The notes below the pieces were generated by a model. It did not search any database and was not told the DNA's origin. It worked only from the letters and a program-made list of their open reading frames with translations. 64,000 bases of DNA from a virus: IMG/VR virus record IMGVR_UViG_3300025655_000022, positions 23,178 through 87,177 of that record; one strand, given 5' to 3'. Below, piece by piece: positions 1-18,400 of the stretch (the first letter of the stretch is position 1; every line of letters begins with the position of its first letter). Position numbers and translations under genes: made by a program.

Positions 1-831
1 ATACTCTGCACGGGCACCCATTGCATCTAAACTTGCACCTACACTAACATTTGGAAAATGCTCCCACATATCAAATGCATGTTTGTCTCGTAGTTTTACT
101 TGTGTAAAGTTTGTGTTATAAATCAGTCGAACATCAGTACGTCCACGTTTAATAAGTTCTTCAAGTATAGCATAGTGTTCTTCCATCACAAGAGGCTCAC
201 CACCAGCAAAATAAATCTGTTCTACATAATCAATATGTTCCAACACTTGCTCTAACAAGTCTGTTTCAAACTTGCCAGCATAGGTTAACTGTGGGTTATT
301 CTCTTTATACTCTGGACCTGCTAGTGCAATTTGATCCTTGTACCATTGTGAACTAAAAATGTGGCCACAACTCCTACACTTGAGATTACACAAGTTACTG
401 AAACGAACATCCCAATAGGTCATCTTAAAATTGGCGTAGGCACCATCAGCGTCAGTTTCCGCTACACGCTTTATGTGCTGACCATGATGTTTGTTTGCTG
501 ACTTGCGACCACTAAAAAAGCCTGCCTCGTCTTGTTCATAACAACGAGTGCAGTATGAATTCTTTTGATTATTTAACATGTCCAAACGCAGTTTCTTTAT
601 GCGTTCGCTATTTGCTAGTTTGTTTAACGAGTCTTGTTTGGTAGTGCCCACACAACCTGCACTCATCTCTGCGTGACAACAAGGCCAAGTTTCGCCTGTA
701 GGATATGTGTGCATGTGTATCCACGGATAGATACAAAACGTTTCGCTGTCTCGCAGTAATTCTGTTTCTCGCTCTGTTAATTCATCTACCGAGATCTTAA
801 CAGGTTCCCAACTGTTATAATCATAACTCAT
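1..831 (-). CDS. Radical SAM protein, N-terminal cysteine (twitch-like) cluster; 3' end outside window
   Basis: The reading frame opens at ATG 831 and stays open to base 1, giving 277 codons, so the C-terminus is missing. The radical SAM motif CxxxCxxC is at residues 148-155 (CNLKCRSC) and GGEP at 210-213, both diagnostic for binding the 4Fe-4S cluster and S-adenosylmethionine. Upstream cysteines (C33, C51, C52, C60, C94, C97) form an N-terminal cluster that could bind a second iron-sulfur cluster, as in twitch/SPASM-type radical SAM enzymes. The start overlaps the end of the upstream gene by 11 bases, which suggests translational coupling. It is more distant from the radical SAM genes at 1569 and 5082 than those are from each other. 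The substrate is unknown; the neighbours suggest glycan or surface-molecule modification. Confidence 0.85.
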   Translation of the reverse strand, partial: MSYDYNSWEPVKISVDELTERETELLRDSETFCIYPWIHMHTYPTGETWPCCHAEMSAGCVGTTKQDSLNKLANSERIKKLRLDMLNNQKNSYCTRCYEQDEAGFFSGRKSANKHHGQHIKRVAETDADGAYANFKMTYWDVRFSNLCNLKCRSCGHIFSSQWYKDQIALAGPEYKENNPQLTYAGKFETDLLEQVLEHIDYVEQIYFAGGEPLVMEEHYAILEELIKRGRTDVRLIYNTNFTQVKLRDKHAFDMWEHFPNVSVGASLDAMGARAEY

Positions 832-1579
832 ATAAAATACCTTGATTTAGCAACACTTGGACTAGATATTCTGTTGTCCATTTGTAGTGTCCTTCAGCAG
901 TAGGGTGGCCAGCCAGGTAACCAGCTGCCGATTTAGGATAGCAAAGGTTATGCATGTGTGCAACTTCATCAAGTGTTTGCATTCTGTTTATTAGAATCCA
1001 TTTTGAGTAATCTAATTTTAAATTTAACCTTTTTAGATGCTTGTTAAACTTAAATTTATTAGTAATAATGTCTGTGTCAAGTATTTGTGACAGTGTTGTA
1101 AATCGATAGGTATATTGGTTTAGTTCTAAATAGTTATAGAGATTTTGCATATTAATCCAATTTAACAGCACTTGCGTATTTTCACCTACTAAAGACCGGT
1201 AGGTATTACAAAAGTCTGTATCTGGACCAAAGTTGTCTCCGCCTAGTAAGAAATACTCGCTGTGTTCGTTGTACCTATATTCTGGATGCTGTTTTTCTAT
1301 GGTGTACTTGTCTGACTCAACAATAAGACTGGCGCGATCTAATCCGCTCCACATAACTAATACTAACGTATCTAACGGAGACATATTGTTAGCAGACAGA
1401 TAATGCATTACGCTTCTAGATATATGCTCATTGGACTCGCTAGGCACTGCTAAGTTATGAATTTGCATGCCTGCGATATCAGCAAGCATATTTCCCCAAG
1501 ATATACTTTCGTGATAATCGTTGGCCGTATAGCTACATCCGCTAACAACTAAGTGTTTGTACTTAGTCTTATAGTTCAT
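821..1579 (-). CDS. SGNH/GDSL-like hydrolase or esterase-type protein
   Basis: The 252-residue protein starts at ATG 1579, inside the last codons of the upstream radical SAM gene (11-base overlap); longer upstream extensions would overlap that gene much more. The N-terminal stretch VVSGCSYT has the GxSx block I of SGNH hydrolases. The C-terminal HPTAEGH resembles block V, where Asp and His of the triad usually sit, although Asp is not obvious here. SGNH proteins usually remove or transfer acyl groups on polysaccharides. Between two radical SAM genes and among glycosyltransferases, a role in acyl modification of a glycan is plausible but inferred. A second SGNH-type gene lies at 10871-11557. 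Confidence 0.6.
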   Translation of the reverse strand: MNYKTKYKHLVVSGCSYTANDYHESISWGNMLADIAGMQIHNLAVPSESNEHISRSVMHYLSANNMSPLDTLVLVMWSGLDRASLIVESDKYTIEKQHPEYRYNEHSEYFLLGGDNFGPDTDFCNTYRSLVGENTQVLLNWINMQNLYNYLELNQYTYRFTTLSQILDTDIITNKFKFNKHLKRLNLKLDYSKWILINRMQTLDEVAHMHNLCYPKSAAGYLAGHPTAEGHYKWTTEYLVQVLLNQGILYEL

Positions 1580-2924
1580 TATACCATTCTCCAATGACAG
1601 GGAATGTTTCTGCCAGGTTTTTGCCGCGACGTTGATCATATTGTGCATAAAACTTTTTAAAGTCATTGTGCAGCGATGGCATATCAAACGTATCTGAGTG
1701 CGGAGTCTTAACAACATCTAAATAATCAATTAGTCGTTGCACATGATTAATCTCATGTTCATGCAGTAGTAGATTTTTATATGCATGTTCTTCTAACCAA
1801 GTATCTAGTTTGTCTGCATAATCCATACGCAAATCATCTGGTAATACCAATGGCGATTGAAAACTTGGAAAACGTAATATGTTTAATGTAAACGAAGGAT
1901 AATCCTGACCAAAACGTTTCTTTAAATCTAGCATCCAATCTAAAAACTCTGTTAATGATTCTAAGCATAATGCATTAATAGTACACATAACATGGAAACC
2001 GTCCACTTTGCCTTCGGTTAGAACACGTTCAACATTGTGTTGCCATTGTTCCCAATTTAAACCATCGCGTATATATTCTGCGTGTGCTCCAATACTTTCG
2101 TTACTGGTATATAACTGGAAATTTTTGATGTTATGGCTTGCTTTAATTAGCTGATCAAGTTTAGCATCGTCGATTCCAAGATTACTGTTTAGAGCAAATT
2201 TCACCGGGCTTTCATTCTCAACAAACCAATCAATGAGTCGCATGGTGTGCGGGCTCATCATAGGTTCGCCTCCGGTTAAGCGTAGCTCTTGTAGAGTTTT
2301 GTGCAGATCTGATTCCCACCATTTAAAGAACGCTTCTACATACGGATTAGTTTCGTTTGGCTTATACAACTGTGCTGCATCGTGTGTGTGCGTAAAGTGT
2401 CCTCTACCATCGCTAACCAGTCCTTCATACGCACCGTGTTTCTTTAAATCTGTAACCCATTGCGTACTAAACGCAGGATTGCAATACGAACATGCAAACT
2501 GACAAGTTCTGTCAAACGCAATTTCTAATGTCTTTAAATCTACATCTTCATCTGGATTTAGCATATATGCTTCTACAAGATCCTGCTCAGAATAGATCAC
2601 ACTTTTATAAACACGGTCGCTAATAGCGTCGCGGCCCATGTCTTCGATCTTCCAACAATACTCACATCCGGGCGGACGTTCTCCTACTTGCATTTGCGCA
2701 CGATCTTGTTTCTTTTGTGGAGTATTGTGTAATGCTTTTGGATTAGCAACAACATCCCCAACACTTACTAAATGTGCCGGCGGGTGGTGGCAACTTGTAG
2801 TCATGCCGGATCCTAGCCAAATAGTAGCATTATACCACTTAGCTGCACAAAAGCTCGGACTAAAACCATCGATATATCCTTTAACTTCTAAGTCTGTATT
2901 TCTATCCTTCTTTCTTAAGCCCAT
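1569..2924 (-). CDS. Radical SAM protein with N-terminal cysteine cluster
   Basis: The 451-residue protein has the radical SAM motif CQFACSYC at residues 141-148 and LTGGEP ending near residue 221. Cysteines C26, C45, C87 and C90 in the first 90 residues form an N-terminal cluster shared with the gene at 5082 (SPSFC.AKW, CxHPP and a C..CW pattern). The C-terminal end FPVIGEWYNEL matches the shape of the other paralogue's C-terminus. It is probably a twitch-type radical SAM oxidoreductase; the substrate is unknown. The start overlaps the decayed gene upstream by 10 bases and the end overlaps the SGNH gene by 11 bases, so the chain is translationally coupled. The ends of this protein also identify the remnant at 3874-4046. 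Confidence 0.85.
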   Translation of the reverse strand: MGLRKKDRNTDLEVKGYIDGFSPSFCAAKWYNATIWLGSGMTTSCHHPPAHLVSVGDVVANPKALHNTPQKKQDRAQMQVGERPPGCEYCWKIEDMGRDAISDRVYKSVIYSEQDLVEAYMLNPDEDVDLKTLEIAFDRTCQFACSYCNPAFSTQWVTDLKKHGAYEGLVSDGRGHFTHTHDAAQLYKPNETNPYVEAFFKWWESDLHKTLQELRLTGGEPMMSPHTMRLIDWFVENESPVKFALNSNLGIDDAKLDQLIKASHNIKNFQLYTSNESIGAHAEYIRDGLNWEQWQHNVERVLTEGKVDGFHVMCTINALCLESLTEFLDWMLDLKKRFGQDYPSFTLNILRFPSFQSPLVLPDDLRMDYADKLDTWLEEHAYKNLLLHEHEINHVQRLIDYLDVVKTPHSDTFDMPSLHNDFKKFYAQYDQRRGKNLAETFPVIGEWYNEL

Positions 2925-3210
2925 ATGTTACTTAACCTACAATCGTTTTCAATAAATGTTTTATCTACATATTTCTCATCCACTGGCAGTGGATTTAACA
3001 CATCAGATAACTTCGCTCTTTAAAATTTAACAACTTATACCAGTCACTATTTTTAAATTATGAGTCAAACCAAGTCATGTTAATAACTAGATTTTGATTA
3101 TTTGGAAACGCTTCGTCAACCTGCTGGCAACCATTGTTCCAGATCTCTTTCTCTGGTTTTGAATATTGATCTACAGATGATGGTGTTTGGCCTAATGTTA
3201 TCGTACTCAT
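2915..3210 (-). pseudogene. Decayed N-terminal part of a TEK-family glycosyltransferase-like gene (nonsense plus frameshift)
   Basis: ATG 3210 overlaps the upstream stop as ATGA, a normal coupled start. A 50-codon frame (3058-3210) ends in VINMTWFDS then TAA. It aligns with residues about 26-49 of the intact paralogue at 4030-5085 (NLIVNITWLGPQ). The stop falls exactly on that protein's Gln50, so a CAA to TAA change explains it. Beyond the stop the same frame continues the alignment (FKNSDW against FKNGIW). The match then moves to another frame (VLNPLPVDE against LFWLAPVDP), so there is a frameshift near 3000. That last frame ends by overlapping the next gene's ATG by 10 bases, as a coupled gene would. 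A separate functional 50-residue peptide cannot be excluded. Confidence 0.65.
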
Positions 3211-3884
3211 TGGATATACTTTTTATAATAAGTCTGATTATAATGCTGGTATTTTTCAATAAACTTTACGGCTTGGGTATTTAAATCAACAAAAAAGTTT
3301 TTATTTACAACGTCAACTAAACGTTTGTCAGATAGGCCAATAACTGTTGCAAAATCTATAACAACATCAAACTCTGTAGGATCTGTAGCTGTTACCCATT
3401 CTTTTACATAGTTTAAATTATGCAAAGATATCATTTCATTGGCAATTATTTCTGAATCTCGAATATTGGTTAGGCTGTATTCAGGCCAGTCATTTCCACG
3501 CAAGTTATTATATGCTGTCTCTGTCCACGACTCAGGATTTGAGTCAGCTTTAAAAGTTTTCTGTGCAGACACTAACAAAAAATCATCAGGTTTACAGTTG
3601 ATCAATGTTACACACGATCCAGAATAAAATTTTTCTATATCATTTCGGTTTGTAAAATGTGTAGTCCCAACTGTAAACTTTTTACTTTTATCTGACATCA
3701 AAAACGAAAAGTTGTTTCCTGATTGCCATTTTCCAAAACCAATATCGTGGCAGTTTCCCTCGGGCGAAATGTAAACATTGTCTAAATCAAAACCTTGCAA
3801 TCCAGATAATAGTACTAATTCTAAAAAAGTTCCTGATGCACCAGTCGGGTGATTTATTACATATTGTTGACTGTTATCTTGCAT
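3207..3884 (-). CDS. Conserved-looking protein of unknown function, NHPTGASGTF motif
   Basis: This is a 225-residue soluble protein with no signal peptide or membrane segment. I do not recognise the family with confidence. The N-terminal VINHPTGASGTFLE is glycine- and serine-rich and faintly recalls the phosphate-binding start of sulfotransferase-like P-loop proteins, but no second sulfotransferase motif is evident. The start ATG 3884 lies inside the tail of the decayed radical SAM gene (11-base overlap), and the stop forms ATGA with the next, decayed gene. It is therefore an intact gene flanked on both sides by broken ones, which suggests it is retained for its own function within the modification cluster. 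Confidence 0.55.
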   Translation of the reverse strand: MQDNSQQYVINHPTGASGTFLELVLLSGLQGFDLDNVYISPEGNCHDIGFGKWQSGNNFSFLMSDKSKKFTVGTTHFTNRNDIEKFYSGSCVTLINCKPDDFLLVSAQKTFKADSNPESWTETAYNNLRGNDWPEYSLTNIRDSEIIANEMISLHNLNYVKEWVTATDPTEFDVVIDFATVIGLSDKRLVDVVNKNFFVDLNTQAVKFIEKYQHYNQTYYKKYIQ

Positions 3885-4046
3885 AATACCTACACTCCCA
3901 CCAGGTAATCATCTCTGGAAATGTTTCTGTAAAATTATATCCATGCCGCTTATTATATTCGTTAAAGAAAAACTCGTACTGAATTCATCGACCCATTGCT
4001 TAATTTCCAGGTCTGTTTCTCTACCCGGTTTACGTAGTTTGCTCAT
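3874..4046 (-). pseudogene. Remnant of a radical SAM gene: fused 5' and 3' ends, centre deleted
   Basis: From ATG 4046 the frame reads LRKPGRETDLEIK...VDEFS.SF, matching the first ~25 residues of the radical SAM protein at 1569-2924 (LRKKDRNTDLEVK...IDGFSPSF). Immediately afterwards, in a different frame, the DNA encodes FFNEYNKRHGYNF then TETFPEMITWW. This matches the last ~30 residues of the radical SAM protein at 5082-6494 (FFNEYDHRHNYDF, FPEMAAWW). About 400 central codons, including both iron-sulfur motifs, are missing. The C-terminal frame ends by overlapping the next ATG by 11 bases, the same junction geometry seen at intact radical SAM genes in this cluster. The 173-base length is not a multiple of three, consistent with an out-of-frame deletion. 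Confidence 0.8.
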
Positions 4047-5085
4047 TGAATAACTCGTTTAATTTTTTATCTTGTTCTTGTGCAAATTCAAAGAATCTTT
4101 TTCTATTATAAACTAGATCAGGAAGCATGTCAACATACATACTGTTTAAATCTGCTGTAGTTAGATATTTAACGGCTTCTGTGATAGCTGGGATTATTTG
4201 TTCTTCGTTTACATCTTCTAACTCAACTGGGAAGTAATGCGTAAATGTTTTAAATCCGTTGTCTCTTAACCATTGATATATCTGCGGCTGACCGTTAATA
4301 AGGAACGGGCGCATGCCTATGATTGGTTTCCATGTCTTTTCAGTGACAAACATAGGATCCCACGGCCGCCATTCTGTTTCAGATATGATGTTCAAAAAGT
4401 GCTTGCGCCAGATATCTAACCTTCCAAGACTGCAAACATCAAACGGCACACCACCAAATGCATTATAGCCGCTTACAGACTCTGGAGCATAATCTTCTGG
4501 TGCATCATTATTAATTTTTAAAAATACATCTGTGTTAATGCCTTCGCTTGCGTCATAATCAGCATTGTTAAGTCCTAATGTAACAATACCATCATCAAGT
4601 AAATTGTTGTGCTTTAAGGATTCAACAATACGAATTCTATGTGGTTTGGGTTTTCTATTTAAACACATGTATTTGTATTCTATAGTTTCTAAACGCACAT
4701 CTTCGTCTGTGTAATTTGGAAAATCCTGATAGCTTGCAATAGCACCTGTGTTAAATGTATATGGCCCAGTATTAAACGAAGATCCAACATGAAACACACG
4801 GTTTACACCAAGACGTTGTTCAATCTCGTTACGCTGTTTTTCTGTTATTGTTAGAGGGTCAACAGGAGCCAACCAAAATAGATTATCGTACGTCTTATTA
4901 ATGCTACAAACCTGTTCCCATATTCCATTTTTAAACTGCGGACCTAGCCAGGTGATATTAACTATTAAGTTACGTTCGTTAGGAAAGTTAAACTCAACTT
5001 GACGTTTTACTGTATCAATAATATAATGCTCTTGTTTGCCCCACGGTTCATTAATGGCAAAATGTGTTCCAATAAATGTTATCAT
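4030..5085 (-). CDS. Glycosyltransferase-like protein, TEKTWKPI family
   Basis: The 351-residue product starts at ATG 5085, which overlaps the radical SAM stop as ATGA; the extra 7 residues available upstream are unlikely. Key features are YKYMCLNRKPKPHR near residues 137-150, TEKTWKPI at 248-255, then RPFLI and a GFKTF block near 277-281. A TEK motif followed by a hydrophobic strand and a glycine turn resembles the nucleotide-sugar site of GT10/exostosin-type glycosyltransferases, so a sugar transferase is the best guess, but this is inference. Paralogues occur at 6481-7440, in two pieces at 43920-45028, and as a broken copy at 2915-3210. Its pairing with a radical SAM gene recurs in this cluster. 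Confidence 0.6.
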   Translation of the reverse strand: MITFIGTHFAINEPWGKQEHYIIDTVKRQVEFNFPNERNLIVNITWLGPQFKNGIWEQVCSINKTYDNLFWLAPVDPLTITEKQRNEIEQRLGVNRVFHVGSSFNTGPYTFNTGAIASYQDFPNYTDEDVRLETIEYKYMCLNRKPKPHRIRIVESLKHNNLLDDGIVTLGLNNADYDASEGINTDVFLKINNDAPEDYAPESVSGYNAFGGVPFDVCSLGRLDIWRKHFLNIISETEWRPWDPMFVTEKTWKPIIGMRPFLINGQPQIYQWLRDNGFKTFTHYFPVELEDVNEEQIIPAITEAVKYLTTADLNSMYVDMLPDLVYNRKRFFEFAQEQDKKLNELFNEQTT

Positions 5086-6494
5086 TGATTGGCCCAGTAC
5101 TTGCATTCATTCCACCAGGCTGCCATTTCCGGAAATACCTGCAAAAAGTCATAATTGTGACGATGGTCATATTCATTAAAAAATCTATAGAAATCTCCCT
5201 TGTGCTTTTGTGAATTTTCAATAGGTGTTTTCATCCAAGCAATGTCTCTGTCCAGGCGTTTAATTTCGTAATCTTTAAATCCTTTAAAGCGTGTTCGTGG
5301 TGTTTCAACATGTTCCATCATCCACATCATTAGATCTTCTAGTTTGTCTGCGTACATATCCGGAAGCAATCGCATACTCTGCCATTTGGGAGTGTGCAAT
5401 ACAGGAGTATCAAACCAAACACGCTGATAGGTATTACTATAAAGTTGTCTTAATCCATATATTCCAGTAAACAAATGTTCTAAACTGGTTACTGATAGAT
5501 TATTCATTGTAATAATAAATGTTAAACTACTTCTATATGGTACTTCTGTTAAAAATTGATTTACACGATCCCATAATAAATTAAAGTTTAGTCCAGCACG
5601 CATATATTCTGCTTGTTTACCAAACCCATCAAGTGAAACATATTGCATAAAATGTTCAACATTCTCACCTTCATTACAAATACGTTTCACATAATCAATA
5701 TATTTGTCCCATAGTTTTTGTTCTACACTGAGATTAGATGTTACATTTAGGTGTAAGTCTGGTTTTGGATTCTCTAATACATAATCAAACACACGATATG
5801 TGTTTTTATCCATTAGTGGTTCACCGCCTGTCATGCGGAAATGTTTTAAATCAGGATACAACTCTGGCCACCATTGCCAAAATGCTTCTACGTATGGATT
5901 ATACTCTGAATGCGGAATAGGTCTACGTTCTCCTTGGAAGTGTACAGGATCGTTATGAGGAACGCTTGTTGGATACGCACCATGTTCTTTTGCCTGGCGC
6001 ATCCACGAACTGCTAAATTGGGGTGAGCAATAACTACACTCTAAATTACAAGCAGAGTTAAAGTTCACCTCAACATACGCAGGGTTAGTGTCTGCCATTG
6101 GGTCAGCTACAACTTCATCAAACTTTTCAATAGCCCACGGTTCTCCTGAACGGTAGTGTCTATCACTAAGTTTTCCGTTATCTTCCATTGCCCAACAATA
6201 GAAGCACTCCTCAGGACGTTCGCCTGCGATCATCTTTTCACGCTGTAGTTTTTTATAATCAGTGTTATGCAACTTACCGGGATTTCCGGCGAGTTCTTCT
6301 ACAGGTATTTTGCGTAGTGGTGGATGATAACATGAGTTATTCATGCCATTGGTTAAATGCAAACTTACCTGCTTCCATTTAGCCAAGCAGAAACTTGGAC
6401 TCACTGTATCTAATTTTTGTTGTGCTATTTCTGCATCACTTAAGAACTTTGACTTAAAGTCCTTGTCTACTTCGTCACCTTTATTTTGGTTCAT
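5082..6494 (-). CDS. Radical SAM protein with N-terminal cysteine cluster
   Basis: The 470-residue protein has the radical SAM motif CNLECSYC at residues 149-156 and MTGGEP ending at residue 226. N-terminal cysteines C36, C55, C97 and C100 form the same cluster as in the gene at 1569. The two proteins share SPSFC.AKW, a C.HPP step, GERP..C.YCW and NPYVEAF.(Q/K)WW. A second iron-sulfur cluster and a peptide or glycan substrate are possible, but the substrate is unknown. The start lies within the last codons of the upstream TEK gene (14-base overlap) and the stop forms ATGA with the downstream TEK gene. Translation of radical SAM and TEK partners is therefore linked on both sides. Confidence 0.85.
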   Translation of the reverse strand: MNQNKGDEVDKDFKSKFLSDAEIAQQKLDTVSPSFCLAKWKQVSLHLTNGMNNSCYHPPLRKIPVEELAGNPGKLHNTDYKKLQREKMIAGERPEECFYCWAMEDNGKLSDRHYRSGEPWAIEKFDEVVADPMADTNPAYVEVNFNSACNLECSYCSPQFSSSWMRQAKEHGAYPTSVPHNDPVHFQGERRPIPHSEYNPYVEAFWQWWPELYPDLKHFRMTGGEPLMDKNTYRVFDYVLENPKPDLHLNVTSNLSVEQKLWDKYIDYVKRICNEGENVEHFMQYVSLDGFGKQAEYMRAGLNFNLLWDRVNQFLTEVPYRSSLTFIITMNNLSVTSLEHLFTGIYGLRQLYSNTYQRVWFDTPVLHTPKWQSMRLLPDMYADKLEDLMMWMMEHVETPRTRFKGFKDYEIKRLDRDIAWMKTPIENSQKHKGDFYRFFNEYDHRHNYDFLQVFPEMAAWWNECKYWANQ

Positions 6495-7440
6495 TATATA
6501 AATCTAATAGTCTATTATAATTATGATCTAAGATATCTTGCATATTCTTTAGCATCCAACTAATCTCTTCGGTAGATTCTTTTGCTAGGGTATCAATTAC
6601 ACGAGTTATTTCATGTATAGAGTGGGTATGTGGATCTTCGTCATATCCCTCGTCCCAAAAATCATTAAATGTTTTAAATCCCAAATTGCGTAAATTCTTT
6701 AGATAGCCTGCCGGGCCTTGCACAATAAATGGAGTCTTTAATAATATTGGACGCCATATCTTTTCGGTCGGGAAAAATGTATTTCCGGTAAAATAGGTTT
6801 CACAAACAATCTCAATAGCAAATTGACTGTACTTGTTTAAAAAATCATCAGAGTCATTCTTAAATAATTGCTGTGCAGGATTAATATCAAGAGTCTTATC
6901 GATTTCAACAGATTGTGTATTAATCGGGCACTGGTTAATGTAGTTAGCAATATCTGTTATGTCAGTAATATTGTATTCGAGCATTAGTCTCTCTAGACCA
7001 ATGTTAGCAGCATAGAACTCGTTGTCTAAATCTAAATGATTTGTGTGTAATGAAATATTGCGATGATTATTATAAAGGTACGACGACAAGTAAAGCCTTG
7101 GTGCGTTTCCTCGGCCGACAAATAATCCAAAATGTTTTAGATCATTTGATTTTTTTATTGTGGATTCATATTCAAGTGCGTTATATACCAGGTGTATAGG
7201 AAAAGTCGATGACGGCTCTAGCATATTACAAGTTTGGAAAGTAATGTTACCGGTATAGTTAACAGTAGTTTTAATGGTATCGATATATTCATCTATGCCA
7301 AGTGTTGTAAAGTCTGGGCCTTCTGAGTTTAGGTCTATTAGCAGATCCTGATTGGTATATAATGCTTGGGCTATTTTTGAATGGACCTCCACGGTGTTCC
7401 ACACTACACTATCGCTAGTTTTAACCTTAACTGTTATCAT
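6481..7440 (-). CDS. Glycosyltransferase-like protein, TEKIWRPI family
   Basis: The 319-residue protein carries TEKIWRPI at 225-232, PFIVQGPAGYL at 237-247 and LGFKTFNDFWDEGYD from about 253. This is the same C-terminal block as the 351-residue paralogue at 4030. A middle stretch (LKHFGLFVGRGNAPRLYL, residues 101-118) occupies the place of the paralogue's YMCLNRKPKPHR segment. The C-terminal block resembles GT-B/GT10-like sugar-nucleotide sites; the activity is inferred. It overlaps the 2OG-like gene upstream by 14 bases and the radical SAM gene downstream by 14 bases. There is no signal peptide or membrane span, so it acts in the cytoplasm. Confidence 0.6.
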   Translation of the reverse strand: MITVKVKTSDSVVWNTVEVHSKIAQALYTNQDLLIDLNSEGPDFTTLGIDEYIDTIKTTVNYTGNITFQTCNMLEPSSTFPIHLVYNALEYESTIKKSNDLKHFGLFVGRGNAPRLYLSSYLYNNHRNISLHTNHLDLDNEFYAANIGLERLMLEYNITDITDIANYINQCPINTQSVEIDKTLDINPAQQLFKNDSDDFLNKYSQFAIEIVCETYFTGNTFFPTEKIWRPILLKTPFIVQGPAGYLKNLRNLGFKTFNDFWDEGYDEDPHTHSIHEITRVIDTLAKESTEEISWMLKNMQDILDHNYNRLLDLYNEPK

Positions 7441-7969
7441 CTAATAGAAAGCCTGATACCTGTAAAGTAAACTTATCTTGAAAGCCAGCATTAGCACCAA
7501 GATGCCACACCTCTGAATCCCACATTAATGCATCGCCGGCTTTCCAATGTGTAAAAACTGTATCACCGTACTGTATAAAATGTCCCATTTTCCAGTCTTC
7601 TAGATGTACATTAGCACGAACTTTTAATCTGGTATCGTTAGGATATTTACTAGTAATCTGATAAAACATATCTCTGTGCAAAGGAATAACACATCCTGGA
7701 CGTTGTCTAATAGCACTAACAGAAATTACTTCCATACCTAATTGTTTACCTAAATCTTCATAATCAATTTGTGTGTTGTCATACCATAATTGATTAATTC
7801 TTGTATTATCGTAAGAATACGAATCTGGAAAACCGCCATATTCTTGGTGTATATCGGCGCACTCAGTGATTTGGTGTTTAATGCACGATCCTTCGTGTGT
7901 ATTAAAGTCGTCATTAACAAACCTACTATAATTAATATCTAAATGTTTTTTATTAAAATACATTATCAT
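7427..7969 (-). CDS. 2OG-Fe(II) oxygenase / aspartyl-asparaginyl hydroxylase-like protein
   Basis: This 180-residue protein has the double-stranded beta-helix signature. It shows PGCVIPLHRD (HxD-type iron ligands near residues 97-99), RLKVRANVHLED, then GDALMWDSEVWH, which would supply the distal His, and finally FTLQVSGF. The spacing fits aspartyl/asparaginyl beta-hydroxylase and cupin-like 2-oxoglutarate oxygenases that use an HxD...H iron triad. Phages of this type often carry such oxygenases; the substrate here is unknown. ATG 7969 overlaps the upstream stop as ATGA; a second ATG two codons later is an alternative start. Confidence 0.6.
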   Translation of the reverse strand: MIMYFNKKHLDINYSRFVNDDFNTHEGSCIKHQITECADIHQEYGGFPDSYSYDNTRINQLWYDNTQIDYEDLGKQLGMEVISVSAIRQRPGCVIPLHRDMFYQITSKYPNDTRLKVRANVHLEDWKMGHFIQYGDTVFTHWKAGDALMWDSEVWHLGANAGFQDKFTLQVSGFLLDDNS

Positions 7970-8892
7970 CCCTCTTGTGTTCTAACAACATCTATCTCAC
8001 GTACAGTAGCACCCATATTGTGCCAATTACTGCGATAATGATGTTTAAAAAATTTACTTGATTTTGCGTCTAGTAGAATCATTGGCAAATCTAAACGTCC
8101 TGTTAAACGCTCGCCATAAAATTCAATCATTTCATGCGGATCGTTGTTTTGTGTTGTAGACCATAATTCTGCTAAATTATCGAACCATTGTACTTCTCGG
8201 TAATCCCAGTCTTCAAGCATAGTCATAGATGTGCCTTGACGTGCACCAGCAATCGCCCACGCTCCGTTTTCTACATCAAGTCCAACATTGTGCCAAATAG
8301 TTAAATGGTCCATGTTACGCTTATGCACTGCATCCTTAAACTCGATTTCAGTCGGTTTACGTCCACGGTCCAAACACATCTTAACACCTTCCCTAAAACC
8401 TGCTCGCCACGCTTGAAATGCACTGCCGTTTGGATATGTTGTACTATAACAATCATGCATAGACCAGTACAATGGATCAAAACAAAATTCTACGCAGGTA
8501 TCATTAGACCCGTCTGATGCTTCGTGTGTTTTCATGTTTCGAATGAATTCACGTGTCCAGCAACTTAATCCACCGTTGCCGTACATAAGCCCATTAATAT
8601 GATTAACTGCTCTCCAACGAAACACAGCCCGCTCATACTCTGGCGTTTTCATTTCTAGTTGTAGATTAAAGAATTCTGGATTTGGCAAATTATCGCCGTC
8701 AATAAGCACAAAACGTTCGGTTGTGCTTGCTTCTGCGGCTGCTTTGTGTGCAGCATCTGAACCTTTTACTCCGTCGACACGAACAGCCCAAGGTATCATG
8801 TTTTTAATTTTAACCCAGAATTCTTCTTTCTGTGGCTCATCATAACTTAGATACACAACATCCAAGTCGGCAATATCAATAATATCACTCAT
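7966..8892 (-). CDS. Glycosyltransferase, GT-A type (DxD)
   Basis: The 308-residue protein starts with a beta-alpha-beta pattern (DLDVVYLSYDEP). It has FVLIDGDN near residues 61-68, a DxD-type metal and nucleotide-sugar site expected of GT-A glycosyltransferases. Downstream VFRWRAVNHINGLMYGNGG and SCWTREF look like an acceptor-site region. It probably transfers a sugar from a nucleotide donor; donor and acceptor cannot be read from the sequence. It overlaps the upstream small gene by 8 bases and the 2OG-like gene by 4 bases (ATGA), so it is part of the continuous translational chain. Confidence 0.6.
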   Translation of the reverse strand: MSDIIDIADLDVVYLSYDEPQKEEFWVKIKNMIPWAVRVDGVKGSDAAHKAAAEASTTERFVLIDGDNLPNPEFFNLQLEMKTPEYERAVFRWRAVNHINGLMYGNGGLSCWTREFIRNMKTHEASDGSNDTCVEFCFDPLYWSMHDCYSTTYPNGSAFQAWRAGFREGVKMCLDRGRKPTEIEFKDAVHKRNMDHLTIWHNVGLDVENGAWAIAGARQGTSMTMLEDWDYREVQWFDNLAELWSTTQNNDPHEMIEFYGERLTGRLDLPMILLDAKSSKFFKHHYRSNWHNMGATVREIDVVRTQEG

Positions 8893-9190
8893 AGCGTTTT
8901 AGTTTCCACGTTTGGTCAGGAGTAACGATTGCAACATCTATACCTTGTGCGACTGGTACAAGTTTCTGATAAACATATTGTCTGGGCTTAATTAATTTTC
9001 CATCAATAACTCGCACATCATAGCGTCCACTAGCATATGTTTCTTTGTCTACTATAATGTAATTACCCAATTCTTTGTCGATTGAATAAAAAACAGGTTC
9101 GCCTAGATCGTTATAATATAAACGATATTCTAACTCTGAATGTTCTGCAGGCTGTTCTGCGTGTTCAAGTGCTTGCCAAAAGTTTGTCAT
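8885..9190 (-). CDS. Small protein of unknown function in the glycosyltransferase cluster
   Basis: This 101-residue product is taken from ATG 9190 (MTNFWQALEH); an ATG at 9214 would add 8 residues and lengthen the overlap with the upstream glycosyltransferase to 50 bases. The central part is beta-rich (RLYYNDLGEPVFYS, NYIIVDKETYASGRYDV) and the end is lysine- and arginine-rich (TWKLKRYE). No known domain is recognised, and no signal peptide or membrane segment is present. The 8-base overlap with the glycosyltransferase downstream suggests the two proteins are made together. It may be an accessory subunit, but that is inference from position only. Confidence 0.5.
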   Translation of the reverse strand: MTNFWQALEHAEQPAEHSELEYRLYYNDLGEPVFYSIDKELGNYIIVDKETYASGRYDVRVIDGKLIKPRQYVYQKLVPVAQGIDVAIVTPDQTWKLKRYE

Positions 9191-9974
9191 ATACGGGTTC
9201 CAATTCTTGTGCAAAGTCTTTTTGATGGTAGTGTACTGGATAACGCTGACTTACAGTATTAATTCTAAACTCTCCATCAATTAATTCCCATACAAGTTGT
9301 TTACACCAATCATCAGCAGCGATGTTATTGATGTGTTTTTTCATGTGTACCAAACTTGGGTACGAAGTATCGGGTAGTGTAACACGTTCTACACCGATAA
9401 AACAGGCAGCCATTGCGTATACTAAATCAGTGTTAGCAATTTCGCCCGATCCGCCGCGCAAACTTTGCTTATATACATCCCAATTTTCAAAAATATGTCT
9501 TACTCTAAAGAAAAAATCTTTTGCTGTTTTACTAACACGCCAATATGTAATAGCATTATATACATCTGGCAAATTATTCAAATCAAATATTTTACGATAG
9601 TGTCTTGATGTTGCCGTATGTTGTAAAAAATTTTTACTACCTTGTGTTACTACTACATCGCGATGTTCCAACATAGTCCACCAATGATCAATTGGCGCAG
9701 TAACAATCATATCTGCTTCTAACTTAATAGTTTGTCTAAATGGACTAGCAGAAAACACTTGCCAATCATCAGCCCATCCACCTACTGTAGGATATGGAAA
9801 CTGTTTTACATAATCAAACACAGGATCTGAATATTCTGTATCTGTTAACAAGCATATCTTTGCTGTTGGGTGCCAGTAACGTAGGCTTTTTGCAAGAACA
9901 CGTGCGCACGCAATGTAATCTACATCAGATGTGTTAGTAGCAACAATTAAATATCCACGTTCTGCTTCAATCAT
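9165..9974 (-). CDS. Glycosyltransferase, GT8-like
   Basis: The 269-residue product uses ATG 9974, which overlaps the upstream stop by 8 bases; a longer upstream start would overlap 40 bases. The N-terminus GYLIVATN followed by ACARVLAKSLR is the nucleotide-binding start of GT8-type enzymes. KICLLTDTEY and IKLEADMIV supply the second strand and the metal-binding acidic motif. It shares this plan with the neighbour at 9967-10704, so the two look like old tandem duplicates. It is cytoplasmic, with no membrane segment. The sugar and acceptor are unknown. Confidence 0.6.
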   Translation of the reverse strand: MIEAERGYLIVATNTSDVDYIACARVLAKSLRYWHPTAKICLLTDTEYSDPVFDYVKQFPYPTVGGWADDWQVFSASPFRQTIKLEADMIVTAPIDHWWTMLEHRDVVVTQGSKNFLQHTATSRHYRKIFDLNNLPDVYNAITYWRVSKTAKDFFFRVRHIFENWDVYKQSLRGGSGEIANTDLVYAMAACFIGVERVTLPDTSYPSLVHMKKHINNIAADDWCKQLVWELIDGEFRINTVSQRYPVHYHQKDFAQELEPVYDKLLAST

Positions 9975-10704
9975 ACAATGCCTCCAAGTGCTTTTTACCC
10001 ATGGCATGAAAATCCATGCCAGACAATTCTATGCGTTTATTGTCATAGCGTACTGTATACACGTTATCTGTACGTGTTAGTACGTGTTCGGGAACAACAC
10101 TTTGTAGTGTCCAGGGAATATCGAACTGTTCTGCGTTAAAATGTCCGTCAGCAATGTTTAATGCAATACTTAGTGCATAATCATTTCTGTATGGGTGTTT
10201 TTTAAAGTTATACAAGTTAGCATAATGCTCGTAGTTTGTTTCGACCATCTGCATCGCGTCAAATATAGCACGTGCAGTGTCGGATTTTGTAAAGTACACA
10301 ACAGTCGCCCACCACATTGGAAAACGGTATTCACCAAACGTGTTTAGCTGTTTGCTCCAACCTGTACCAGTAACACTGTTTGCATTCCGATGTGCTAGAA
10401 AATCTTGGCCACTTCTAAACAAATTTAACAATTGGTCGCTATTTACAATATAATCTGCGTCCAACAATACAGTTTGATCGTATGGTGATAACTCGTAAGC
10501 ACGTGAACGTCCAGAATTTAACCACTTTACGCTTTTATCGTAATCCGCGAACCAACGTGTACTCGAAGTTTTTGTATCTATATCGGTTATAATAGTCGTA
10601 GGTAGGCCTAAATATTGCTTAATGTTTTTAGCACTACGTTCTGCGAGTTTGACATAATCAATATCACCGTTATTATGTGCAAATATTAAACAACCTTGCG
10701 TCAT
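9967..10704 (-). CDS. Glycosyltransferase, GT8-like
   Basis: The 245-residue protein opens with GCLIFAHNNGDIDYVKLAER, then PTTIITDID, and has the DxD-type motif TVLLDADYIV near residues 78-87, where GT8 enzymes bind manganese and the sugar nucleotide. MWWATVVYFTKSD and NDYALSIALN resemble the acceptor-side part of the same fold. It is likely a sugar transferase, but donor and acceptor cannot be told. The start forms ATGA with the 57-residue gene upstream, and the stop overlaps the second GT8-like gene by 8 bases, so expression is coupled. Confidence 0.65.
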   Translation of the reverse strand: MTQGCLIFAHNNGDIDYVKLAERSAKNIKQYLGLPTTIITDIDTKTSSTRWFADYDKSVKWLNSGRSRAYELSPYDQTVLLDADYIVNSDQLLNLFRSGQDFLAHRNANSVTGTGWSKQLNTFGEYRFPMWWATVVYFTKSDTARAIFDAMQMVETNYEHYANLYNFKKHPYRNDYALSIALNIADGHFNAEQFDIPWTLQSVVPEHVLTRTDNVYTVRYDNKRIELSGMDFHAMGKKHLEALYD

Positions 10705-10874
10705 TTAATTTCCAGCGCCTTTCCAATTGTGTTATCAAGATCTTGCATTGTTGTATGTAAATCTTGTTGAATTTCCAATACCCGACGTTTTGGATTTAGA
10801 TTAAATTTAGCAGTAAACCAAATATTAACACGATCTGCAATGTCTACTAGCATTCTAAAAATTTTACGTTTCAT
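10701..10874 (-). CDS. Small basic/helical protein of unknown function, 57 aa
   Basis: Both ends are ATGA overlaps: ATG 10874 with the SGNH gene upstream and the TGA stop with the GT8-like gene at 10704. This is strong evidence that the short frame is translated. The sequence begins MKRKIFRMLVDIADRVN and continues as a charged amphipathic helix with LEIQQDLHTTMQDLDNTIG, so it may form a short coiled coil or a partner peptide. It is not recognisable as any known family. It occupies the only gap that would otherwise break the overlapping chain. Confidence 0.6.
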   Translation of the reverse strand: MKRKIFRMLVDIADRVNIWFTAKFNLNPKRRVLEIQQDLHTTMQDLDNTIGKALEIK

Positions 10875-11557
10875 ACTATTCTCTCTAGTGTATCTAAAAA
10901 CAAAGCATGCGCTTCGGGCGGATTGTGGTTATTAACATTATGTGGGCCAAATGGCATATCCCAGGGTTGTTTTTCGTATGGCGGCCATAAACTATCGCCT
11001 AGCCAGTTCCATCCCATCCAAAACATTGGGCCAGGCATAAAGATGAAACGCAGTCCACTCTCTTGTAAAGCACGTAGTCCGTCTCTAATAACGCAGCCAT
11101 CGATGTTGTACTGTAGTCCCATATCGTGCAAATCTGCAATATATCTTTGTACTGCCTGTTTAGTATCTTCACCAACATCAATATATTGTGCTTCGACGAT
11201 ATTTGCTAGTGTATCGCTTACAATAAACACTTCATCGTGATCAAACTCTTGCTCGCTGCTACACTGATATCCTCGATATTCAATATGCTTTAATTCAACA
11301 GGTGACCTCCACCCATCCGGATTACGTACAATATTAATTCTATCACTACTAGTAGCGCCAATAACAATTAAGTCTGGTTTCTGTTTAATGGCATAATCAA
11401 TTTGCAGTCTAATAGCAAAATTTGTAGCGCCAGGACGGGCAATACAATGATATTCATATTTGTTGCGTTCACAAAACTGTTGTAAAAATGTTGGGAAACC
11501 ACATGTAGAGGTATCATCACTCATAAAACTACAACCTAAGCTATATAAGGTTTTCAA
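10871..11557 (-). CDS. SGNH/GDSL-like hydrolase-type protein
   Basis: The 228-residue protein shows the SGNH blocks in order. Block I is LYSLGCSFMSDD with the nucleophile Ser near residue 10. A GATNFAI segment near 43-49 is like block II, LIVIGATSSDR near 63-73 is like block III, and NNHNPPEAH near the C-terminus is a possible block V. These proteins are usually esterases or acyltransferases on glycans. It overlaps gp4 upstream (ATGA at 11554-11557) and the 57-residue gene downstream, so the accessory island is joined to a head gene. A paralogous plan is present at 821-1579. Confidence 0.6.
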   Translation of the reverse strand: MKTLYSLGCSFMSDDTSTCGFPTFLQQFCERNKYEYHCIARPGATNFAIRLQIDYAIKQKPDLIVIGATSSDRINIVRNPDGWRSPVELKHIEYRGYQCSSEQEFDHDEVFIVSDTLANIVEAQYIDVGEDTKQAVQRYIADLHDMGLQYNIDGCVIRDGLRALQESGLRFIFMPGPMFWMGWNWLGDSLWPPYEKQPWDMPFGPHNVNNHNPPEAHALFLDTLERIV

Positions 11558-11943
11558 AATAACTCCCGCTCAGTTAGTACCTGAAATTCCATATTATATT
11601 CTTTACAGTATTTCTCTGCCGCCGCCCATTTTGCCTTATTAACATGCCATTTCATTTGGTAACGTGGTTTAATCTCAATTAGCTTTTGTCGCGGATTGCC
11701 GTATTTGTCAATATAGTCAACATAAAAGTCAGGATAATAATTACGCATACGGTTTTCTTTAGGATGCATATATGGAATATGAAAACTTTCCGAATCCCAA
11801 AATTGTATTGCATCCGAACGATCACAATATAACATAAACCTACGTTCCCATAGACTACGATAGATAGGATCTTTTTTACCTAAAAACTTTGATTTGTTTG
11901 TAGGGGTAAATTTACCTTTTACGGCTGAGTTCTTGAAATTCAT
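11554..11943 (-). CDS. 4: Head completion protein gp4
   Basis: The 129-residue protein matches the T4 gp4 (gene 50/65) family in length and content: SLWERRFMLYCDRSD, HIPYMHPKENRMRNYYPDFYVDY and KLIEIKPRYQ. The D..Y.E.K pattern is the nuclease-like core of this family. In T4, gp4 acts late in head assembly, after DNA packaging, and is needed for a head competent to join the tail. The start lies 32 bases inside the upstream small gene. That gp4 begins the run leading into the glycan-type island is a notable gene order. Confidence 0.85.
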   Translation of the reverse strand: MNFKNSAVKGKFTPTNKSKFLGKKDPIYRSLWERRFMLYCDRSDAIQFWDSESFHIPYMHPKENRMRNYYPDFYVDYIDKYGNPRQKLIEIKPRYQMKWHVNKAKWAAAEKYCKEYNMEFQVLTERELF

Positions 11944-15493: not shown

Positions 15494-18400
15494 TCACTCG
15501 CCTCTGAAGAATCGTGCTGGAGTTGTTTGTTGTTTTTGCAGTGCAATACCATTGGTTATATACCATATTAAATTATATGGATGGCGTAAAACGCTACCTC
15601 GTGATTGGTCTTGTACTGAACTAGACGCGGCGTGTCTTTGAGTTGCTGTACCGGCTGTGCCTCTTCTGAGTCCACTGATGGTGTTATTGATTGTATCGCG
15701 TGTTCTGTAGGTAATCCTTTCACCATTAATATTAACTACACCAAAGATACCTGCCGGAAGATTGGGTTCGCCCAGCTTGCTTGCGTCATCAACATACACT
15801 GTGTCATGCCAGGGTTCCAAATCTTGCACAAGTTCAGTTGTATTATCACGTATAATACGGTATACTGCTGCATTCCCACGCATATCGTTAAAAATTCTGA
15901 ATGACAATTCATCAGGAACAACACTATTAGTAAATGTGGTAATAGCAACCACATCAATTGAACTGATCGCACCTCCTGATAAAAGAATAGCAGTGCCATC
16001 GTTTGATAAAACAAAATCTTCACCTGCTGTCAATCTGCGTCCATTGAGTGTTACCCAGATTCGGTCAGCATTTTCAATTGTTCGATATAGTTCAAAAATA
16101 TTGACCGTTGAATCAACACCAATAGTATAGTCAAACGGTACACTATCGAAACCAAAAACGTCCATCCCTTCTGATACTGGAAGTTCAATTACTTTGGGTC
16201 CTTGATACACCACAGTGAGTGCATCTTGTTGTCTGATATCTCTGAATGTAGTCACTGCGATAACATCCCCAGCACTCAAGACAATACCAGAGCTTACAAT
16301 TTTTAATTCATTATTGATGTTGTTAACTGTATAGTCAGCCGATCCAGTAACATAGACATCCACCGTATCGCCAGCATCAGGAGTTACTGACATGATAACA
16401 TACCGTTCAGAACTTTCATCGTTAAGTGATACAGCATAATCGCTGCCCAGTGTTTTCTTTTGGTTGTTTATGTATACAACTACTTCTGAATCAGCAATTA
16501 ATGTCTGATCAGTTCCTGTGCGGATGCCATCTGGGAAATAAAACTCCACAGTTGTACCATCACCGATGTGTCGAATGCCTTCGCTAGGGCGCAATCTTCG
16601 TCCATTGAGTTCAACGATGATATTATCTCTGGCTGAGCTTTCGATATTACCAGAAATAATAAAACTGGATGTGGTTCCGTCTGAAACAAATATTTCTGTT
16701 TCAGGATAACTATATCCATAATCGATTAATGATGAATCTGATTCAAGAATTTGTTCACCAAACAAAGTTACAACTATGAAATCATTGCCAGTGTATGTTG
16801 TGCTGAAAATAAATTCAGTTTCGCCAACCACGGTTTCAGAATAGCTATATGCGGTGGTTTCAATACCATTTATCAGGATCAATGCCTGATCAATGTCGTT
16901 AACATCCACTGGCACAGTTATTCGATTTCCAATCTTATCGCCGATATAATTTTTTCTGAATATCTGATGTCCGCCGCCAATCTCATAAACATAAATCTTT
17001 ACTACTTGGCCGGACGATACACCAGAAGTTACTGTGATTGTTCTGTTTACCCAGTTGATGGTATAATTTCTGTTATTATACAACCTATCACCAGTGGTAC
17101 CATTGAATACCACCAATTCCACAGGATGTTCAACAATTCCAGCAAAACTAAAGGTATCTCCGCCATCATAAACATATGATATGCCTTTGATCTGTGACGC
17201 ATGCCCATTGCCAGTATAATCATGCCCAGGTCTGGTTCTGACTGTCATATCAAGTGTATCAAATATTGCGCCAGGTACTAATTCTTCTGGAGCATGTGAA
17301 CTATATTCATCAATAAATGCCCCACCATCTACATTGATGTCTTCAGCACGTGTTCCGATGTAGATATCTGTAAACAAACTGCTGTATTCTGTGTCTAATA
17401 TGGCATCACTATATGTGGGTAATCCTTCAGGACCATAGTCAATATTATCAAATGGTGTAATATCAAAATTTCCAATATCATAACCAGTGTTATCACTAAA
17501 GTTTGTGCTTTGTACTTGTACACCTGGATAATCGATTCCATCGATCAGCAAAGCCAAATCCAATCCAGGATTGTTTACATCAGCAACATAAAAACCGGTA
17601 GTACGATCAACACCGCTCAGTGTGGATGCATTTACCAGTTCATAATTTTCTGGATCAAATGTTGATTCCTGAATTGAGCTACCATCTGCTAAACTTACGC
17701 GATACACACGGTCGTTATAGCGCACCAATTGATCTTCATTGTAAACCGTATCTGGCGTCCAATCCACTATCTGGCTCTGATATTCATAGCGATCATACTT
17801 GATTGTAGTCTTGATGTTTCTGACCAGATCGTTTTTCATGTACACGGTAGTACGTGCGCCAGTGCCATTTCCACCAGTGATTTCTATGATCGGGGTTGTT
17901 CTGTATCCATATCCTGCGGTTGAAATTTGAATTTCAGTAACCTGTCCTACAGAATTAATCAGCGCAACTGCTTGTGCTGGCTGCGTGGCATCTCCAATAA
18001 TGTTAACGGTGGGTGGTACTGTATATCCAGATCCAGCATTGGTTATAACGATTTCATCTACTGCGAGCAGATGATTATCATACCAGTCTGACCAAGGTAT
18101 GGTATCCCATACACTATCAGTGGATAAACGATTGCTTGGATCTGTTTCCAGAGCAGCAAACCCATCATCTAGAATTGGACTTACATATTTTTCATAAACC
18201 GAATCATACGCCGCAGGATTATCAAAATCAGTTGCGCTGCCATCATATAAGTCAATACCTTCATATTTTAATAAGAAGTCTTTAATCTTAACGTGATATG
18301 GTTTAGCCTCTTCAATATAGTTTTGCACAAATGTTTGGTTGTCTTTTCTGTAAACATTGTACTTTTCAAGATTTCTGACTTTGTGTTCGACGTCGATTAA

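What the first reader, a model, noticed from the sequence alone, without database searches (positions are those of the whole stretch)
1..11557. Overlapping modification island: radical SAM, TEK-type and GT-A glycosyltransferases, SGNH, 2OG oxygenase
Seen: from 11557 to 1 nearly every gene overlaps the next by 4-26 bases, mostly ATGA or 8-14 base overlaps, without internal promoters. It contains three radical SAM genes, two intact TEK-type genes, three GT-A-like genes, two SGNH genes and one 2OG-like gene. Inferred: one transcript makes a multi-enzyme system that builds or decorates a glycan, lipid or virion glycoprotein. Radical SAM genes alternate with TEK-type genes, suggesting paired use. 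The substrate is unknown, so this may be a new phage-encoded modification pathway.
Basis: partly seen in the sequence, partly recalled or inferred. Interest (0 to 1): 0.7.

Follow-up and report, generated by a model that had tools for sequence, protein, structure and literature searches.

The report
Five-radical-enzyme glycan-tailoring cassette in aquatic jumbo phages
A family of large, uncultivated water phages carries, right behind its tail genes, a strictly ordered set of five radical-SAM enzymes wrapped in fast-changing sugar-transferase genes; a predatory bacterium has the same five enzymes on its chromosome, so this looks like a real but still undefined pathway for building or editing an unusual surface sugar.

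Summary
In detail: from 11557 to 1 nearly all genes overlap by 4-26 bases, with three radical SAM genes and two intact TEK genes. The island continues about 16 kb past the window. Relatives show what the window alone cannot. In 122 non-redundant environmental phage loci the core order is A-A-p-G-R0-R2-R1-R3-R4-u-C (canonical in 97 of 98 testable loci). All five radical SAM genes belong to NF033640 (N-terminal twitch), form five lineages and keep their iron-sulfur cysteines. TEK proteins are GT-B-fold, GT10-like glycosyltransferases; they are accessory, hypervariable, and sit mainly before R0, R2 or R4, never R1 or R3. One Bacteriovoracaceae chromosome carries an orthologue of each of the five, and the family is enriched in Bdellovibrionota genomes (35/138 vs 2/298). 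Cultured Vibrio phage K566 has a distant version beside an LpxC homologue. Best reading: a late-expressed pathway that makes or edits an unusual glycan for tail fibres or the host surface. Acceptor and chemistry are unknown. Radical SAM plus glycosyltransferase cassettes are already known in Campylobacter phages and pelagimyophages, so this is a new variant of a known kind.

The parts
11554..11943 (-). gp4-like head closure gene (phrog_218); the island overlaps its end by 4 bases
   Evidence: PHROG E 2.5e-36
10871..11557 (-). SGNH-type hydrolase candidate (SGNH2), phage-specific insertion before the core
   Evidence: GCS and HxxxxH motifs by eye; no Pfam hit; rare in relatives
10701..10874 (-). 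small ORF, 57 aa, unknown
   Evidence: 4-base overlaps on both sides
9967..10704 (-). A1, GT-A-like protein with LDADY motif; hypervariable core gene
   Evidence: phrog_1903 E 4e-7; order; no Pfam/PDB match
9165..9974 (-). A2, paralogue of A1
   Evidence: phrog_1903 E 9e-6
8885..9190 (-). p, small conserved-position protein of unknown function
7966..8892 (-). G, GT2-like core protein with invariant DxD-type motif; also found beside radical SAM genes on Bdellovibrionota chromosomes
7427..7969 (-). 2OG-type oxygenase candidate, accessory
   Evidence: Asp_Arg_Hydrox 15.6 bits, below cut-off 22.6
6481..7440 (-). TEK gene in the slot before R0; GT-B/GT10-like by homology to the modelled TEK
   Evidence: same family as the modelled TEK
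5082..6494 (-). R0, N-twitch radical SAM, the most widely kept member
   Evidence: NF033640 324.7 bits; clade 0
4030..5085 (-). TEK gene in the R0-R2 slot; GT-B fold predicted
   Evidence: AlphaFold2 pLDDT 85; Foldseek top FucT 2nzy E 3.5e-4; VIA Z 11.2 T4 BGT, 10.6 FucT
3876..4044 (-). chimeric scar: R2 N-terminus fused out of frame to R0 C-terminus
   Evidence: tblastn 89% over 27 aa to R2 and 72% over 32 aa to R0, E about 1e-14 each
3207..3884 (-). h, unknown protein; homologues in two relatives in the same slot between R0 and R2
2930..3210 (-). decayed TEK N-terminal remnant, frameshifted
   Evidence: tblastn E 6e-10
1569..2924 (-). R2, N-twitch radical SAM
   Evidence: NF033640 311.7 bits; clade 2 support 0.99
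821..1579 (-). SGNH1, DUF6071 family, insertion between R2 and R1, not found in the relatives
   Evidence: PF19547 34.5 bits, cut-off 27; start read from sequence
1..831 (-). R1, N-twitch radical SAM, cut by the window edge (whole gene: L003 10723-12009)
   Evidence: NF033640 396.3 bits for the whole gene; clade 1

Best explanation
This is part of a conserved, probably late-expressed glycan pathway of T4-like aquatic jumbo phages. Proposed mechanism: sugar-nucleotide genes (epimerase, DegT aminotransferase, UGDH) supply an activated amino sugar. The conserved G protein and the five ordered radical SAM enzymes R0-R4, with u and the carbamoyltransferase C, make or edit a rare sugar or glycan by radical steps (epimerisation, dehydration, deoxygenation or C-C chemistry) that use a SAM-derived radical and an N-terminal auxiliary iron-sulfur cluster. 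The hypervariable transferases (A pair, TEK GT-B enzymes) then choose linkages, giving each phage its own glycoform. The product is placed on the phage's tail fibres or on the host surface, changing recognition or blocking rivals. New TEK variants enter by recombination in the conserved flanking radical SAM genes. Shown: gene order, orthology, conserved cysteines, predicted GT-B fold, variability contrast, linkage to tail genes, bacterial counterparts, recombination scar. Inferred: the chemistry, the acceptor, single-transcript expression and its timing, and the biological role.
For: Core order A-A-p-G-R0-R2-R1-R3-R4-u-C, 97/98 loci canonical, 75 with all five, R4 followed by u in 90/96. Five separate lineages, support 0.81-0.99. 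CX3CX2C kept in 99.4% and the N-terminal cysteines in 97-98% of 331 proteins; the N-terminal region matches the BtrN (twitch) auxiliary-cluster domain, E 1e-3. TEK = GT-B, nearest GT10 fucosyltransferase and T4 BGT. Median identity 0.58-0.70 for R, G, u, C against 0.29-0.48 for A, p, TEK. Tail-fibre-like genes lie directly upstream, same strand, 57/57; the gp53-position gene abuts A in most of 41 loci (median distance -3). Sugar-nucleotide genes share the island. Bacteriovoracaceae chromosome with an orthologue of each of the five. Vibrio phage K566: four related radical SAM genes, two GT8 and a GT4-like gene near an LpxC homologue. A Bdellovibrionota locus has TEK, G, an SGNH-like gene and radical SAM genes together.
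Against: No enzyme of NF033640 has a demonstrated substrate that I found; SPASM/twitch radical SAM proteins often act on peptides. No flippase, polymerase or initiating transferase was seen in the stretch examined, so nothing visible exports a glycan; only SGNH3 has a strongly hydrophobic stretch. The GT-A assignments are not supported by Pfam or PDB profiles, and the G and A profiles are not alike. u has no clear relative of known function. TEK is rare in the Bdellovibrionota genomes tested (2/17), so glycosyl transfer by TEK is not tied to the radical SAM set there.
Confidence: 0.5

Rival explanations
1. Host-surface remodelling: the products act during infection on the host's lipopolysaccharide or capsule, excluding other phages. 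This is one version of the glycan model, with the host as acceptor.
For: LpxC homologue and an annotated PagP near the K566 cassette; chromosomal counterparts in Bdellovibrionota near GT2 genes and a GLF/amine-oxidase-type flavoprotein; published reading for pelagimyophages (PMC7029224).
Against: The core is joined to tail-fibre and gp53-position genes on the same strand in all relatives tested, which predicts late expression; no membrane export proteins seen.
Confidence: 0.4
2. Virion glycosylation: the pathway decorates the tail fibres or giant tail protein encoded just upstream. This is the other version of the glycan model.
For: Abutting, co-oriented position behind tail genes in 41-57 loci; mostly soluble enzymes; hypervariable transferases beside fibre genes.
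Against: Bacterial chromosomes keep radical SAM genes of the set, G and u without phage fibres.
Confidence: 0.35
3. Peptide or protein modification unrelated to glycans: N-twitch radical SAM enzymes mature a peptide or a structural protein, and the transferases are neighbours by accident.
For: SPASM/twitch radical SAM enzymes commonly modify peptides (established knowledge); weak matches to peptide maturases; the small protein p has a fixed position.
Against: No obvious precursor peptide noticed in the core (not searched systematically); repeated association with GT genes in three settings (window family, Vibrio K566, Bdellovibrionota).
Confidence: 0.15
4. DNA hypermodification: TEK enzymes glycosylate phage DNA as T4 BGT does.
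For: T4 BGT and AGT are among the top structural matches of TEK.
Against: TEK is accessory and hypervariable; it has a GT10-type TEK motif; no dedicated modified-pyrimidine pathway noticed (a thymidylate-synthase-like gene at L002 5398-6282 was not tested further).
Confidence: 0.06

Closest known systems
Host recognition cluster of pelagimyophages and cyanomyophages (PMC7029224)
   Same: Large variable island by the tail-fibre module of T4-like aquatic phages, rich in glycosyltransferases, with radical SAM cassettes that differ between close relatives.
   Different: In the passages read, radical SAM genes are mentioned only briefly as added cassettes; here five orthologous lineages in strict order form the stable core and the transferases vary.
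Campylobacter phage CP220/CPt10 radical SAM module (PMC2853527)
   Same: Five radical SAM genes, an amidinotransferase and GT-A genes in one overlapping, interchangeable module; our island also has an amidinotransferase-like gene (L003 1666-2709).
   Different: CP220 radical SAM proteins are shorter (249-342 aa) and do not reach NF033640; no TEK, u or G is annotated there.
T4-like TARA_ERS488813_N000010 with 12 radical SAM genes (PMC5332604)
   Same: Environmental T4-like virus with many radical SAM genes.
   Different: Reported as Fe-S protein content; no order, partners or function given in the passage read.
Bacteriovoracaceae UBA6144 chromosomal radical SAM array (L185/L221)
   Same: One orthologue of each of R0, R2, R1, R3, R4 in one array.
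   Different: Different gene order, no A, TEK, G or u next to it in the stretch read; beside obgE and other housekeeping genes.
GT10 alpha-1,3-fucosyltransferases
   Same: GT-B fold, best Foldseek match, TEK motif resembling the GT10 donor site (motif recalled).
   Different: No GT10 Pfam hit; sequence identity about 12%.

Membership tests
NF033640 N_Twi_rSAM (twitch-domain radical SAM) | NCBIfam score over cut-off 170 | tested here: met
   R0 324.7, R2 311.7, R1 396.3, R3 332.6, R4 291.1 bits
NF033640 N_Twi_rSAM (twitch-domain radical SAM) | CX3CX2C motif and N-terminal Cys cluster | tested here: met
   99.4% and 97-98% conserved in 331 proteins; alignment A4
NF033640 N_Twi_rSAM (twitch-domain radical SAM) | radical SAM activity and substrate | not testable with these tools
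   needs anaerobic enzymology
GT-B glycosyltransferases | two-Rossmann GT-B fold | tested here: met
   model pLDDT 85; top matches GT-B enzymes, VIA Z 9-11 over 240-290 residues
GT10 fucosyltransferase | sequence family match | tested here: not met
   no Pfam hit up to E 1; the PDB profile search gives no fucosyltransferase
GT10 fucosyltransferase | E-K pair in a TEK-type motif | tested here: met
   E249, K250 nearly invariant in A1; 91/99 proteins carry [TS]EK
GT-A glycosyltransferase (A1, A2) | profile or fold match | tested here: inconclusive
   no Pfam or PDB profile hit; LDAD-type motif only; no structure predicted
DUF6071 (SGNH1) | Pfam score over cut-off | tested here: met
   34.5 vs 27 bits
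Aspartyl/asparaginyl beta-hydroxylase (2OG gene) | Pfam score over cut-off | tested here: not met
   15.6 vs 22.6 bits
CP220-type five radical SAM module | same radical SAM subfamily | tested here: not met
   CP220 proteins at most 43 bits to NF033640, cut-off 170
O-antigen/capsule locus | flippase, polymerase or initiating transferase | tested here: not met
   none among Pfam hits; one protein with a strongly hydrophobic stretch; the contig is a fragment
Host recognition cluster of T4-like aquatic phages | variable region next to tail-fibre genes with glycosyltransferases | tested here: met
   position

The most novel reading that the evidence does not exclude
A five-step radical SAM pathway with unprecedented chemistry, shared as a set between Bdellovibrionota (predatory bacteria) and a widespread group of jumbo phages that probably infect them, which rewrites a surface sugar; the u protein would be a new enzyme or chaperone fold serving it.
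Probability: 0.25. Interest if true: 0.8.

Novelty: new variant of a known kind. Interest (0 to 1): 0.58.

Why it matters
Radical SAM clusters in phages have been noted since 2010 without a function. A strictly ordered set of five orthologous enzymes, present in many phages and on a bacterial chromosome, defines a minimal pathway that can be cloned and tested. If it makes a glycan, it would be a rare case of a virus carrying radical chemistry for sugars, and a clue to the hosts of an abundant uncultivated phage group. Conserved enzymes as recombination anchors for swapping transferases would explain how such phages vary their glycans.

Tried and rejected
Megablast of the island against phages: no match. 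tblastn of TEK, A, G and u against cultured phages: none. TEK profile against PDB sequences: only urokinase noise. Scans with TEK and mixed radical SAM alignments failed for lack of conserved stretches. Foldseek of u: no match better than E 0.1; the VIA cyclophilin-like arrangement (Z 8.3 over 139 residues) is at the level of common arrangements and was not used. Idea that A and G are one family: not supported. Strict radical SAM/TEK pairing: rejected in favour of slot-specific insertion. Promoter scan: at background. gp4 as a general anchor: found upstream of A in only 4 loci; the gp53-position gene is the general neighbour.

Full report
What is there. The window is bases 23178-87177 of an 87,177-base IMG/VR virus record. 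It is a T4-like phage by portal and major head protein; the portal's nearest cultured relatives are jumbo phages such as Sinorhizobium phage Phosso, Atu_ph07 and PA5oct. From 11557 to 1 the genes run on the minus strand and overlap by 4-26 bases, except in a decayed stretch near 4044-2925. The island continues into the rest of the contig: radical SAM R3 and R4, an SGNH-like gene, u, UGDH, carbamoyltransferase, methyltransferase-like, amidinotransferase-like, two more TEK genes, a large G-related protein, DegT aminotransferase and epimerase.

The radical SAM set. All five proteins pass NF033640. A tree of 331 relatives falls into five main clades, and the clades occur in one order, R0-R2-R1-R3-R4, in 97 of 98 non-redundant loci with three or more of them. 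Before them stand A, A, p and G; after them u and usually C. A scan with u returned at least 509 encoding stretches in viral contigs, the kept ones on contigs of up to 345 kb. The radical SAM CX3CX2C and the N-terminal cysteines are nearly invariant, so the enzymes are probably active and carry an auxiliary cluster; the N-terminal part resembles the BtrN twitch domain.

The TEK genes. The modelled TEK protein is a GT-B fold (pLDDT 85) whose best Foldseek matches are alpha-1,3-fucosyltransferases; the VIA list is headed by T4 beta-glucosyltransferase and fucosyltransferases. It is not a GT10 member by sequence. Within the G-to-u segment TEK genes lie before R2 (36 against 9 expected), R0 (13 against 9) and R4 (13 against 9), never before R1, R3 or u; the excess is clear for R2 and slight for R0 and R4. 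They are far more variable than the radical SAM genes (median identity 0.29-0.39 against 0.60-0.70). The window holds a scar in which the start of an R2 gene is joined out of frame to the end of an R0 gene, next to a broken TEK start. This is what recombination between conserved flanking radical SAM genes would leave, and it suggests how TEK variants are exchanged.

Position. In relatives the tail-fibre-like genes lie directly upstream on the same strand (57 of 57 loci that hold both), and the gp53-position gene precedes A in 41 of 41 with a median distance of -3 bases. This fits the host recognition cluster described for pelagimyophages and cyanomyophages (PMC7029224) and predicts late expression.

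Cellular relatives. A genome-contig scan with R0 found 20 loci, most in genomes titled Bdellovibrionales or Bacteriovoracaceae. Sampling whole genomes, NF033640 exceeds its cut-off in 41 of 144 genomes of that phylum and in 3 of 299 genomes of the phylum of the genome titled Alphaproteobacteria; without pre-selected genomes 35/138 against 2/298, Fisher p 4e-17. u and G each occur in 9 of 144, always in NF033640-positive genomes, and in 0 of 299. G lies beside a radical SAM gene in several, and R0-u stand together in L183. A Bacteriovoracaceae contig with obgE, rsfS, gpmI, pfk (read from sequence) and lgt (Pfam) carries an orthologue of each of R0, R2, R1, R3 and R4 in one array; sister support is strong for R4 (1.0) and R3 (0.99), moderate for R1 (0.84), weak for R0 and R2 (0.68-0.69). 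Caveats: the scan was seeded with R0, only two phyla were sampled, and most genomes are metagenome bins.

Other phages. Cultured Vibrio phage K566 has four related radical SAM genes (two over the cut-off) with two GT8 genes and a GT4-like gene, near an LpxC homologue and an annotated PagP. Campylobacter phage CP220 has five radical SAM genes with an amidinotransferase and GT-A genes in an interchangeable module (PMC2853527), but of other radical SAM types. A T4-like ocean virus with 12 radical SAM genes was reported in 2017 (PMC5332604). So the kind of cassette is known; the ordered five-enzyme core and its predatory-bacterium counterpart were not found described in the papers searched.

Mechanism. 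The most likely reading is a pathway that builds or edits an unusual glycan, conserved in its radical steps and variable in its transfer steps. That TEK is a glycosyltransferase rests on fold; that the radical SAM enzymes act on sugars is inferred from repeated company with glycosyltransferase and sugar-nucleotide genes. The acceptor is open: tail fibres (position, mostly soluble enzymes) or the host surface (LpxC neighbour, chromosomal counterparts). The confidences given to the two acceptor versions are shares of where the product goes; the 0.5 for the best explanation is for the glycan pathway as a whole.

Noticed in passing
15494-28735: A 4413-aa open reading frame on the minus strand among the tail genes, a very large putative tail or adhesin protein.
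   Followed up: no
4105-4133: A perfect sigma-70 consensus (TTGACA-17-TATAAT) on the minus strand inside the second TEK gene, just upstream of the decayed stretch; it could drive the distal part separately.
   Followed up: no
L185:9536-10498, L166:8898-9875, L180:11333-12289, L216:7919-8809: Next to R0-type or u genes on Bdellovibrionota chromosomes stands a protein of about 300-325 aa with an SDLDLT/SDIDFT-like motif; three of the four were scanned and have no Pfam match; possibly a nucleotidyltransferase-like partner.
   Followed up: partly
L180, L185/L221: In two different Bdellovibrionota the radical SAM locus sits beside obgE-rsfS-rlmH-gpmI-pfk, suggesting a shared chromosomal site.
   Followed up: no
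L218:11965-23244: Vibrio phage K566, a cultured jumbo phage, has radical SAM, GT8 and GT4-like genes near LpxC and PagP: a workable test bed.
   Followed up: partly
L220:5450-11972: Synechococcus phage S-SCSM2R has an amidinotransferase beside KdsA, KdsB, a glycosyltransferase and 2OG oxygenases: an oxygen-dependent analogue of the cassette.
   Followed up: no
L003:5809-6891 (u): u has a confident predicted structure (pLDDT 89) without a clear PDB relative and an invariant HxxxE plus CHExE pattern in its helical insertion, possibly a metal site.
   Followed up: partly
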